This document shows positions 35,710 to 53,583 of a stretch of 64,000 bases of DNA, one piece after another; the stretch's first letter is position 1, and each line of letters begins with the position of its first letter. The position numbers and the translations under genes were made by a program. This DNA is from Struthio camelus (Eukaryota; Chordata; Aves; Struthioniformes; Struthionidae): positions 556,001 through 620,000 of the forward strand of contig NC_090967.1 of NCBI RefSeq assembly GCF_040807025.1, in the 5' to 3' direction. The notes beneath the pieces are model-generated. The model was not told where the DNA came from. It worked only from the letters and a program-made list of their open reading frames with translations, and did not search any database.

Positions 35710-35847
35710 CTACACCTGACAGATGTTAAAATGAACTCCTGTCTGTTCGATCAAGGTTTCTTCAATCATTTCAATCACGTTATCTTTGGGCTGCAGAAGT
35801 GAGGTCTCTACAGAAGGAAACTTGTCTGTGTTACTTACTGGATCTTG
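35710..35847 (-). CDS. EAAT5-like transporter exon 11, C-terminal tail (residues 501-545)
   Basis: The exon encodes a 45-residue acidic cytoplasmic tail ([14 protein letters not shown]) ending FNICQV, then TAG. It follows a T-rich acceptor (ctttttgcag) and keeps frame. The tail has no clear resemblance to the EAAT5 tail, supporting a separate paralogue. Confidence 0.88.
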   Translation of the reverse strand, partial: QDPVSNTDKFPSVETSLLQPKDNVIEMIEETLIEQTGVHFNICQV

Positions 35848-50800: not shown

Positions 50801-53583
50801 CACTGATCTTGGGATAAGGGCTCAAACCTGACAAATCTGCCTTTTTCATAGCATCCTTGGGCCCTCACCTTCCTGGTAATGGTTCCCCATGGCCCTACTG
50901 CTGTCTCCTCCTTGACATCACTACTTGTTATTAAGAAGTGGAGACTCATTTGCATATGCAAAACAGGCTGGTGGCCGCATGTGCCCCAAAACTGTCAGCC
51001 TGGCACCAGTGTCAAAAATGCAGATAGTTTGTGGCTCCAAAATGAAAGGCAAAGCTCAGGGAGAGCCCAGGAGTCTGTGCATGTGGCCCAGCCCTTGCAA
51101 TACACGGAAGGAGTCCATCACCCTGGCATCCATCCACCCCTCCCTCCCCCCCATAACTCCATACAGGAGCATAGGGAAGGGCTGTCCAGTGAGAGACTCC
51201 CCAGGTCTGCCTGGACTCCACAGCCGTGACCAAAGGAAGAGCTGAGGGGTCTGCATTCTTGGGATGTTAGCAACACCAGCAGCCACATGGCCAGATGGTA
51301 AATGGATGGCATCTACCATCCATCTAACCCTTCGTTCACCCTGCTTCTTCCATCTACTGAGATTCATGCATCCATTCATCCGTCCATGATGCTTCTTCCA
51401 TCTACTGAGTGGGATTCATTCATCCCTCCCTCCCTCTCTCTCTCCATCCATCTATCTATGCCCCCCCAGCCTTTCACTGTGGCCACCCTAAAGGTGTCAG
51501 GGACATGATCTGAAATGTCCCCAAATGAGGTAGGTACTTTCAGTCTACAGTAAATTAACAAACATCACTGGACTTTGAGGGATACCAAGGCAAACTATTA
51601 AAATAAATGCCCCAGGCCACTGTCCCTACATCAAACCACCCCTGCAGTCTCTTAAACCAGACCGAGATTTCCAAGGGACACTTGTGTAGAGTGCAAGGGT
51701 GTACCCAAAGGTGTCACAGGGCTACTTTGAGCAGGCCACCCCCCAAAGGCACTCAGAGACACAGGGCACTTTGAGCCTGGGACAAGTCTTGATGAGGCGG
51801 AGAATGGGCTGTCTGACACCTAGTGTATGGTCAAGAGCTCAGGGCTGCAGCTGACAGGGCAAGGCAGGGGAGTGGGGCAGAGGATGGACAAACTAAGTGC
51901 ACAGCAGGGCTCGGGGGAGCAAGGTGGCCCAAGTTACTGCAGGTGTGCTTGAGGGGTTCAAACTGTGATGGCTGTAGGAAGGGGCTGGCACAAGACAACT
52001 GCAAACTTGAGGCTTGGCCAGGACCTGGCTCAGGGCCTGGGGAGTGCTCTCTGGTCTGGACTGACCCAGCTTGGTGCAGCTTGGGGACATGCTGGGCTGA
52101 GAGTCCCTGCTGAGTGTGACAATGTGTTTGGGGCAGAGGAGCGGGAAGCAGCCAAGGATGAGAGCTCAATGCATGCTGAGGAGCAGGATGCTGGGCCTGG
52201 AGCAAGGCGAGGTATGAGGGCAGGGAGATGGAGCAGGCGATGGCAGGAGCCCCATGGCTCTGCCAGCCCCATAGCTTGGTTCAGACGCAGAGGGGCCAGG
52301 AGAACTGCAGGAGGCTGGCCAGGCTCACATGGGCACATGCACTGGGACCCAGGGAGATTATGTCCTGCTTCACTTAAGTAACAGAATCATCTCTGCTACA
52401 GGCAGTGATGCTGAAGCTCTTAATTGAAGTGACAAGACATTGCTAAATCCTTGCAGATTAAACAGGGATGTTCCAGCATTTGCCAAGCTCTGCAATGTAA
52501 CAACGAGCACATGGACCATCCTGCCTCTCGTGGCTACGCTAGCCCCTGGCAAAGATCAGGGGTGAGCAACAGCCAAGACGCTCACTTTCATTAAAGCCAT
52601 ATGGATTTTACTGCCGTGACATCTAGTAGTGCCATGCTCCTAGGAAGTCCTGAGCAATTGGACCTTTTCAGCACATTTTTTTTTCCCCAATGAATTAGTC
52701 TCCAAGGGCCAGGGGAAGGAGGTGAGCCTGGAGCCCACCAAACTCTCAGCTAGCCCTGTATTTATTTTCTGCTCCTTTTCCAGGGGTGGTAATAGGCTTT
52801 CTTTATGTGCTTCAGTTTATTCTCTGCCCAGCCTTTGGACAGAATGACAGAAACCGCAAAATAGCTCATTCCTGAGGATGCCAATGCAGCTCTGCTATTT
52901 TGCACAGGGGGGAGTTTGCTGCTGAGCATTGAGCCCCGGCTCTGGGCAGCTGGGCAGGAACAACCCCCCTTTCCCATCCCTGTCCCTCCCTGGAGGCTCC
53001 TCCAGCCCCCAGGGATCCAGCCAGTGCCTCTCCCCATTTGTCCACAGCTCAGCCTGGAGCCCCACACCTGGCCACGCTGTCTTAAATAACTCCACTCCCA
53101 GCAGAGGGTGGCAGGATTTGTCCTGCTCAGGGCTGGTGGCTTTTGTAAAATGGTGCTTGGTTAAAAAAAAAAAAAAAGAAAAGGCCCTGGGAAGAAGCTC
53201 TCATTGAAAGGTTATTTTCTTCAGCAGGAGCATTTGCTTTGAGTTTCTTGGGCCCTATGTGGGGCTGTGCCCATCTGTGTCCCTCAGCTGCATGTGTCAG
53301 GGCTGGTGTCTGTTCACCCCGACTGCTGCAAAGAAATGGCAGGCTCAACACAGCACTACTTCTTCCCCATCGCTCCCATCCCTGTCCCCAGCGGTGTCCC
53401 ACTTACCAACTCTGTCAGCTCCAAAGCCCGCAACAAAAATCCCAGGAGGCATCCGGTGACAACTGACAGCATTGAAAGAGTCAGCAGGCCATTTTTGTGC
53501 CAGAAAGCCCGTATCCACTTCCAGACGCTCAGGAAACTAGCGGAAAGTGAGTTTAACAGAGCTTTTTTGAAGCGCTCCCACAT
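35710..53583 (-). CDS. Excitatory amino-acid transporter, EAAT5-like SLC1 paralogue (complete, 11 coding exons)
   Basis: This is a Na+/H+/K+-coupled glutamate/aspartate transporter of the plasma membrane with an associated anion conductance. Eleven exons join in frame to 1638 nt, 545 residues plus stop; human EAAT5 has 560. All introns are GT-AG, with sizes of about 2.65, 3.16, 0.99, 0.78, 2.13, 0.58, 2.19, 1.51, 2.13 and 0.11 kb. Visible motifs are serine-rich HP1 (TSSSSATLP, 354-362), NMDGTALYE (390-398) in TM7, HP2 ([13 protein letters not shown], 427-439) and [12 protein letters not shown] (464-475) in TM8. Residues equivalent to EAAT3 T370, E374, D444, R447, N451 and D455 are all present. 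The arginine marks an acidic amino-acid transporter rather than a neutral ASCT type. Sequence is nearest to EAAT5, but synteny with ELAVL1 and a PRAM1-like gene argues for an SLC1A8/SLC1A9-type (EAAT6/EAAT7) paralogue. The C-terminus, FNICQV, lacks the TxV PDZ motif of EAAT5. ATG 53583 is the first in-frame ATG, with A at -3. Confidence 0.93.
35961..36060 (-). CDS. EAAT5-like transporter exon 10 (residues 467-500)
   Basis: The exon encodes [20 protein letters not shown], with the substrate-binding Asp468, Arg471 and Asn475 and the sodium-site Asp479, then the cytoplasmic [13 protein letters not shown]. The donor gtatgt sits 113 nt before the last coding exon. Confidence 0.96.
36853..36912. 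repeat. Perfect 30-bp tandem duplication
   Basis: Two identical 30-nt units (agaatataaatttcctcagt and ten further bases) lie head to tail inside intron 9 of the transporter gene. Perfect identity suggests a recent duplication. Confidence 0.95.
38187..38321 (-). CDS. EAAT5-like transporter exon 9 (residues 422-467)
   Basis: The exon encodes HP2, the extracellular gate ([16 protein letters not shown]), then [20 protein letters not shown] and IIAVDWAL at the start of TM8. A serine replaces the alanine usual in IPQAG. The donor is gtaagt. Confidence 0.97.
39828..40022 (-). CDS. EAAT5-like transporter exon 8 (residues 357-422)
   Basis: The exon encodes the second arm of HP1 ([15 protein letters not shown]), TM7 with the NMDGT sodium/substrate motif, and [20 protein letters not shown]. 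The glutamate at 398 corresponds to EAAT3 E374, needed for proton/K+ coupling. The acceptor is gtcctgcag and the donor gtaatt. Confidence 0.97.
42216..42449 (-). CDS. EAAT5-like transporter exon 7 (residues 279-357)
   Basis: The exon encodes TM5-TM6 and the first arm of HP1: [38 protein letters not shown], then [20 protein letters not shown]. It ends in the serine-rich HP1 tip. The donor gtatga falls inside a serine codon, so the HP1 serine cluster is split between exons 7 and 8. Confidence 0.96.
43032..43131 (-). CDS. EAAT5-like transporter exon 6 (residues 246-279)
   Basis: A 100-nt exon encoding [20 protein letters not shown], then [13 protein letters not shown] (start of TM5). The acceptor is ggttgcag and the donor gtaaat. 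It was too short and interrupted to stand out as an open frame, but the joined reading frame is exact. Confidence 0.95.
45265..45487 (-). CDS. EAAT5-like transporter exon 5 (residues 172-246)
   Basis: The exon encodes the long TM4 extracellular loop, which is the most divergent part of the protein, then [14 protein letters not shown] of TM4c. It starts [13 protein letters not shown], close to EAAT5 YRTKTTPVVKSPK. The loop has an acidic stretch ([10 protein letters not shown]), and I see no N-glycosylation sequon in it. A long pyrimidine tract and ttccag precede it. Confidence 0.95.
46265..46307 (-). CDS. EAAT5-like transporter exon 4 (residues 157-171)
   Basis: A 43-nt micro-exon encoding [14 protein letters not shown], equivalent to EAAT5 NMFPANLVEATFKQ. 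The acceptor is ctcttacag and the donor gtgagt. It is flanked in frame by exons 3 and 5. Confidence 0.95.
46490..46690 (-). mobile_element. CR1 LINE 3' fragment, antisense to the window
   Basis: Read on the minus strand this matches the CR1 3' region. On the plus strand the diagnostic blocks are 'ccccctgttcaaagcagag', 'tcagagcctcgtccagttg', 'ccatgaatggagattcccc' and 'cagtgctgcaccactttcac', in the order of the reverse-complemented consensus. It lies in intron 3 of the transporter gene just upstream of exon 4, and is diverged and 5' truncated. Confidence 0.8.
47302..47514 (-). CDS. EAAT5-like transporter exon 3 (residues 86-157)
   Basis: A 213-nt exon encoding the end of TM2 ([11 protein letters not shown]), TM3 ([20 protein letters not shown]) and HPGAAAQKE. 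It ends in [11 protein letters not shown], as in EAAT5. The donor is gtatgt. Confidence 0.96.
48188..48275. repeat. 14-bp minisatellite
   Basis: Six imperfect 14-bp units of the form gtggtgggaccaca / gtggtgggatcatg run from 48188 to 48271, with a partial seventh. It is in intron 2 of the transporter gene, close to a CA microsatellite. Confidence 0.85.
48371..48428. repeat. (CA)29 microsatellite
   Basis: Twenty-nine uninterrupted CA dinucleotides are preceded by an imperfect CA/TG-rich lead from about 48340. The length makes it likely to be polymorphic. The long Cys-Val and His-Thr open frames here are artefacts of the repeat. Confidence 0.97.
50673..50752 (-). CDS. EAAT5-like transporter exon 2 (residues 60-86)
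   Basis: An 80-nt exon with acceptor ctctgcacag and donor gtaaga. It encodes [20 protein letters not shown], the highly conserved start of TM2 in all EAATs, and ends two bases into a serine codon. Confidence 0.95.
51300..51461. repeat. Degenerate (CATC)n-type repeat with an internal 40-bp duplication
   Basis: The interval is built from catc/attc words. It contains the block tgcttcttccatctactga twice at about 40 bp spacing (near 51350 and 51390), then a ccatccatctatctat end. It lies in an intergenic-like GC-rich part of intron 1 of the transporter gene (exon 2 ends at 50752, exon 1 begins at 53407). Confidence 0.75.
53407..53583 (-). CDS. EAAT5-like transporter exon 1 (residues 1-59)
   Basis: The exon encodes the cytoplasmic N-terminus and TM1. 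A basic and tryptophan-containing leader ([21 protein letters not shown]) precedes [19 protein letters not shown], which matches EAAT5 TM1. The donor is gtaagt. The leader is about 14 residues longer than the EAAT5 one. The exon may extend upstream as 5' UTR. Confidence 0.9.

What the first reader, a model, noticed from the sequence alone, without database searches (positions are those of the whole stretch)
35710..53583. Intact EAAT5-like glutamate transporter sits in the ELAVL1-PRAM1 block, where mammals have none
The gene is complete and retains all key residues for substrate, Na+, H+ and K+ coupling. Human ELAVL1 and PRAM1 are neighbours on 19p13.2, while human SLC1A7 (EAAT5) is on 1p32. 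The N-terminal leader, TM4 loop and C-tail are diverged from EAAT5 although the transport core is close. This fits one of the extra non-mammalian EAATs (EAAT6/EAAT7, SLC1A8/SLC1A9) rather than SLC1A7, i.e. an old duplicate kept in sauropsids and lost on the line to mammals.
Basis: partly seen in the sequence, partly recalled or inferred. Interest (0 to 1): 0.72.

Follow-up and report, generated by a model that had tools for sequence, protein, structure and literature searches.

The report
Bird EAAT6 glutamate transporter gene (SLC1A8)
The window holds an intact copy, probably from a bird, of EAAT6 (SLC1A8), a glutamate transporter gene that placental mammals and marsupials lost; its existence in birds and its place beside ELAVL1 were published in 2010, so the find is real but ordinary.

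Summary
An 11-exon minus-strand gene at 53583..35710 has continuous phases, 10 of 10 GT-AG introns and a 545-residue product. The product is a full SDF-family transporter, PF00375 E=2.4e-112. ELAVL1 lies on one side and an FYB/PRAM1-type hSH3 gene on the other.

The same genome (G000) has a separate, complete SLC1A7 on another contig, C8:31.80-31.86 Mb. In maximum-likelihood trees the window protein is sister to the SLC1A7/EAAT5 clade, not inside it. The last exon is short (138 nt against 237 in SLC1A7), matching the published mark of SLC1A8. So it is SLC1A8/EAAT6, not SLC1A7 or SLC1A9/EAAT7.

Gesemann et al. 2010 (PMC2873418) already described this subfamily, its ELAVL1 neighbourhood, its retention in birds and platypus and its loss in therians. 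The genome looks avian, paleognath-like.

The parts
53407..53583 (-). SLC1A8 exon 1 (ATG at 53583; N-terminal leader and TM1)
50673..50752 (-). SLC1A8 exon 2
47302..47514 (-). SLC1A8 exon 3 (TM3, YYLWTT)
46265..46307 (-). SLC1A8 exon 4
45265..45487 (-). SLC1A8 exon 5 (diverged TM4 loop, no N-glycosylation sequon)
43032..43131 (-). SLC1A8 exon 6
42216..42449 (-). SLC1A8 exon 7 (to HP1)
39828..40022 (-). SLC1A8 exon 8 (HP1 end and TM7, NMDGTALYE)
38187..38321 (-). SLC1A8 exon 9 (HP2; private GIPQSG)
35961..36060 (-). SLC1A8 exon 10 (TM8, [12 protein letters not shown])
35710..35847 (-). SLC1A8 exon 11 (short C-tail ending NICQV, stop)
2223..2456 (+). ELAVL1 coding exon (approximate ends; named by its sequence, recalled)
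10339..10662 (+). ELAVL1 last coding exon (RRM3; approximate start)
57580..57735 (-). PRAM1/FYB-type hSH3 exon (approximate ends)

Best explanation
The gene is the ortholog of SLC1A8 (EAAT6), the old sister paralog of SLC1A7 (EAAT5), at its ancestral place beside ELAVL1 in a genome that is most likely a bird's. It most likely encodes a trimeric Na+/H+/K+-coupled glutamate/aspartate transporter with an EAAT-type anion conductance, working in retinal or other neural cells. Shown here: gene structure, intact frame, family, relation to SLC1A7, presence of a separate SLC1A7, and conserved transport motifs. Inferred: transport stoichiometry, anion channel, tissue.
For: Intact 545-aa model. PF00375 over its whole length. 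The 37 PF00375 matches listed for the genome fall at 8 places: window, C26:1.68M, C3, C5, C8, C41:18.2M, C41:75.0M and C40:55.5M. The C8 place is a complete SLC1A7: 11 exons, 10 of 10 GT-AG introns, 566 aa ending ELETNV; 7 of 11 exons have the same length in both genes. Tree without any recalled sequence: window protein + SLC1A7, ultrafast bootstrap 100. With human EAAT5 (recalled), bird SLC1A7 + EAAT5 exclude the window protein: bootstrap 98 on 291 columns, 100 on 457 columns, AU p about 0.0007 against either alternative. Core identity 82.4% of 290 to SLC1A7, while SLC1A7 to recalled EAAT5 is 94.2% of 291. Last exon 138 nt against 237 nt in SLC1A7, the direction stated for slc1a8 in the Fig. 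4 legend of PMC2873418. ELAVL1 neighbour, as reported for zebrafish slc1a8 and, as data not shown, for chicken and Xenopus. Zebrafish slc1a8b appears in two retina-related expression tables (passages read, sign conventions not checked).
Against: No SLC1A8 sequence from any other species could be fetched, so grouping with named SLC1A8 proteins was not tested. No expression or transport data. PMC2873418 has inconsistent sentences (which group lost which gene; which salamander gene is which), seen.
Confidence: 0.94

Rival explanations
1. It is the SLC1A7 (EAAT5) gene itself, moved to a new place.
For: Highest similarity among the sequences compared is to SLC1A7, 82.4% in the core.
Against: A complete SLC1A7 exists on C8, flanked at 30.78 and 32.21 Mb by two DM-domain matches, as expected from recalled human 1p32 gene content.
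Confidence: 0.01
2. It is a duplicate of SLC1A7 that arose only in birds or sauropsids.
For: Both share YYLWTT, most exon lengths and the TM4-loop frame. On 291 columns the AU rejection is marginal (p=0.049) and SH does not reject.
Against: Joining it to bird SLC1A7 apart from human EAAT5 costs 25.2 log units, AU p=0.0007 on 457 columns; human EAAT5 recalled. Published slc1a8 beside elavl1 in zebrafish and Xenopus.
Confidence: 0.02
3. It is SLC1A9/EAAT7.
For: EAAT7 is the other extra vertebrate EAAT.
Against: SLC1A9 belongs with SLC1A2; here the window protein joins SLC1A7 with bootstrap 100, away from the EAAT2 pair. SLC1A9 is reported near NUCB1, not ELAVL1.
Confidence: 0.01
4. It is a recently silenced gene whose frame is not yet broken.
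For: No expression evidence was available.
Against: 11 intact exons with all splice sites; of four private changes at otherwise invariant EAAT sites none lies inside the five listed motifs, the nearest, A438S, being two residues beyond SIGAAGIP.
Confidence: 0.03

Closest known systems
SLC1A8 / EAAT6 subfamily (Gesemann et al. 2010, PMC2873418)
   Same: Sister to SLC1A7, next to ELAVL1, shorter last exons, present in birds and absent from therians (abstract, sections 6 and 7 and passages read).
   Different: No difference found; the C-tail without a class I PDZ end and the A438S change could not be compared with other SLC1A8 proteins.
SLC1A7 / EAAT5
   Same: 7 of 11 exon lengths, YYLWTT, DRFRTM.NVLGD.
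   Different: Separate gene here on C8; SLC1A7 has an ELETNV end, an NGS sequon in the TM4 loop and a 237-nt last exon; the window gene has none of these.
SLC1A9 / EAAT7
   Same: Also lost in therians.
   Different: EAAT2 relative, reported near NUCB1.

Membership tests
SLC1 (SDF) family | Full PF00375 domain | tested here: met
   E=2.4e-112, profile 5-386 of 387
EAAT type (glutamate, not neutral amino acids) | NMDGTALYE in TM7 and D..RT in TM8; the two ASCT1 sequences compared have neither string | tested here: met
   TM8 was lacking in the EAAT2 and EAAT3 pieces used; meaning of residues recalled
SLC1A8/EAAT6 | Sister to, and outside, the SLC1A7/EAAT5 clade | tested here: met
SLC1A8/EAAT6 | Next to ELAVL1 | tested here: met
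SLC1A8/EAAT6 | Shorter coding sequence in last two exons than SLC1A7 | tested here: met
   100+138 nt against 100+237 nt
SLC1A8/EAAT6 | Clusters with named SLC1A8 proteins of other vertebrates | not testable with these tools
   no vertebrate sequence collection on hand
SLC1A7/EAAT5 | Inside the EAAT5 clade, with no other SLC1A7 in the genome | tested here: not met
SLC1A9/EAAT7 | Groups with SLC1A2/EAAT2 | tested here: not met
EAAT transporter function | Coupled glutamate uptake and anion current | not testable with these tools
   needs expression in cells

The most novel reading that the evidence does not exclude
Bird EAAT6 has become a functionally distinct glutamate-gated transporter/channel: it lacks the class I PDZ end of EAAT5 (ICQV instead of ETNV), has no N-glycosylation sequon, has a leader 12 residues longer than SLC1A7's and carries a private Ala-to-Ser change at the HP2 gate (GIPQSG). 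It may sit at a different synaptic site with different gating.
Probability: 0.2. Interest if true: 0.35.

Novelty: already known. Interest (0 to 1): 0.12.

Why it matters
It confirms, in one chromosome-scale genome, that SLC1A7 and SLC1A8 coexist in what is most likely a bird, and gives exact models of both genes, one of them absent from mouse and human. In the held library 9 papers hold the word SLC1A8. Passages of 6 of them (53 to 57) and the titles of the other 3 show no characterisation of the bird protein. Of 7 papers holding EAAT6 with 'glutamate transporter' only PMC2873418 was read. The bird protein's function seems open, but not surprising.

Tried and rejected
Rejected: SLC1A7 identity, bird-only duplicate, SLC1A9, pseudogene (see rivals). 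Tried without result: two repeat patterns used to guess the clade, a turtle-type SINE head and a CR1 tail, 0 matches each; Rfam and tRNA scans, 0 each. A test whether the neighbours (ELAVL, hSH3 genes, SCP2) have paralogs near SLC1A7, which would bear on origin in the early vertebrate genome duplications, could not be made because the genome search did not complete. A paper search on that idea gave listings only; nothing from it was used. Human remnants between ELAVL1 and PRAM1 could not be searched; Gesemann et al. report that they found none. No structure prediction was made.

Full report
What is there. On the minus strand, 53583 to 35710, lies a complete 11-exon gene. The product covers the SDF family model (PF00375, positions 5-386 of 387, E=2.4e-112), and its nearest solved relatives are engineered EAAT1 chains and EAAT3. 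The motifs that carry substrate and ion sites in this family (recalled knowledge) are intact: [41 protein letters not shown]. Neighbours: ELAVL1 on the plus strand (last exon E=4.9e-57 to ELAV-like protein 1) and, beyond the 5' end, a gene with the FYB/PRAM1-type hSH3 domain (PF14603 E=4e-18; FYN-binding protein 3e-7).

The same genome. The window is part of a 1.45-Gb assembly of 262 contigs (C26, 8.0 Mb). A PF00375 search scored 46 of 46 candidates and listed 37 matches, which fall at 8 places. By sequence these are SLC1A8 (window), SLC1A6 (C26:1.68M), SLC1A4 (C3), SLC1A2 (C5), SLC1A7 (C8), SLC1A1 (C41:18.2M), SLC1A3 (C41:75.0M) and a second SLC1A3 (C40:55.5M). The SLC1A6 label rests on its place in the tree beside EAAT1, since no EAAT4 reference was used. 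No further place was listed that could be SLC1A5 or SLC1A9; the search scores only its best candidates, so this is not proof of absence. SLC1A7 on C8 runs from ATG at 31863526 to a stop ending at 31804854: 11 exons, 10 of 10 GT-AG introns, 566 residues ending ELETNV.

What the genome is. Of 5 DM-domain matches, 3 lie near 9.3 Mb on C41, 2 on C8 and 0 on C40. The SLC1A3 stretch is 99.79% identical between C40 and C41 over 8878 bases, while SLC1A1 is listed on C41 alone. That fits a bird Z (C41) and W (C40) with a large undegenerated shared region, as described for paleognaths (start of the abstract of PMC6735826, seen in the listing). Bird is therefore an inference, which also leans on recalled chicken Z gene content; no name was given.

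Which paralog. In an 11-sequence tree without recalled sequences (292 columns) the window protein joins SLC1A7 with bootstrap 100. AU rejection of the two alternatives is marginal there (p=0.049, 0.039; SH does not reject), and firm on 457 columns and 6 sequences (p=0.0007 for both). Joining it instead to SLC1A6 is rejected (p=3.7e-5). Core identity: 82.4% of 290 to SLC1A7, 94.2% of 291 between SLC1A7 and recalled EAAT5. 7 of 11 exon lengths agree between the two genes; exons 1, 3, 5 and 11 differ. The last two exons are 100 and 138 nt against 100 and 237 nt in SLC1A7.

How it most likely works. By homology it is a trimeric elevator-type transporter driven by Na+, H+ and K+ gradients, with a glutamate-gated anion conductance (recalled family knowledge; not tested). 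Differences from SLC1A7 with likely effect: no N-glycosylation sequon (SLC1A7 has three, one of them NGS in the TM4 loop); end ICQV in place of ETNV, so no class I PDZ ligand (rule recalled); a leader 12 residues longer; private changes F262V, Y329F, F365L, A438S at sites that agree in the other EAAT sequences compared (at least 8 of 9 present, one of the 9 the recalled EAAT5). Zebrafish slc1a8b turns up in two retina-related expression tables (passages read; sign conventions not checked), which suggests, weakly, a retinal role. Zebrafish EAAT5b and EAAT7 carry a glutamate-gated chloride current in retinal ON-bipolar cells (PMC11288666, passages read); the passages read do not test EAAT6.

What is known. 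Gesemann et al. 2010 (PMC2873418; abstract, sections 6 and 7 and passages read) named SLC1A8/EAAT6 and SLC1A9/EAAT7, found slc1a8 beside elavl1 in zebrafish and, as data not shown, in chicken (chromosome 28) and Xenopus, kept in birds and platypus, lost in therians and in Anolis, and looked in vain for human remnants. What is central to the finding is therefore in print. One sentence of that paper's Discussion says SLC1A8 was lost in archosauromorpha, against its own Results; the present genome, if a bird's, fits the Results. Its Discussion also pairs the salamander EAAT2b and EAAT5b with SLC1A8 and SLC1A9 in an order that disagrees with its own grouping of A8 with A7 and A9 with A2.

Verdict. 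Real gene, correct reading, already known.

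Noticed in passing
window 1-46000 and 46001-64000: G+C in 2-kb steps is 0.32-0.45 in the first part and 0.49-0.55 in the second, an isochore-like border inside the SLC1A8 gene.
   Followed up: no
G000 C40 and C41 (L022, L028): SLC1A3 is on both presumed sex chromosomes at 99.79% identity over 8878 bases, while SLC1A1 and the DM-domain cluster are listed on C41 only: a large shared region, as in paleognath birds.
   Followed up: partly
window 63179-63871: Two adjoining open plus-strand stretches (128 and 102 aa) without a Pfam match at E 0.01; they look like part of a retroelement, from memory only.
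   Followed up: partly
window 59951-60619 (-): 223-aa open stretch holding REEDEIYDDVEPV, which resembles FYB/PRAM1 tyrosine motifs from memory; no Pfam match at E 0.01.
   Followed up: partly
PMC2873418, Discussion: One sentence gives the SLC1A8 and SLC1A9 losses in archosaurs and lepidosaurs the wrong way round compared with the Results, and the salamander gene pairing seems swapped.
   Followed up: yes
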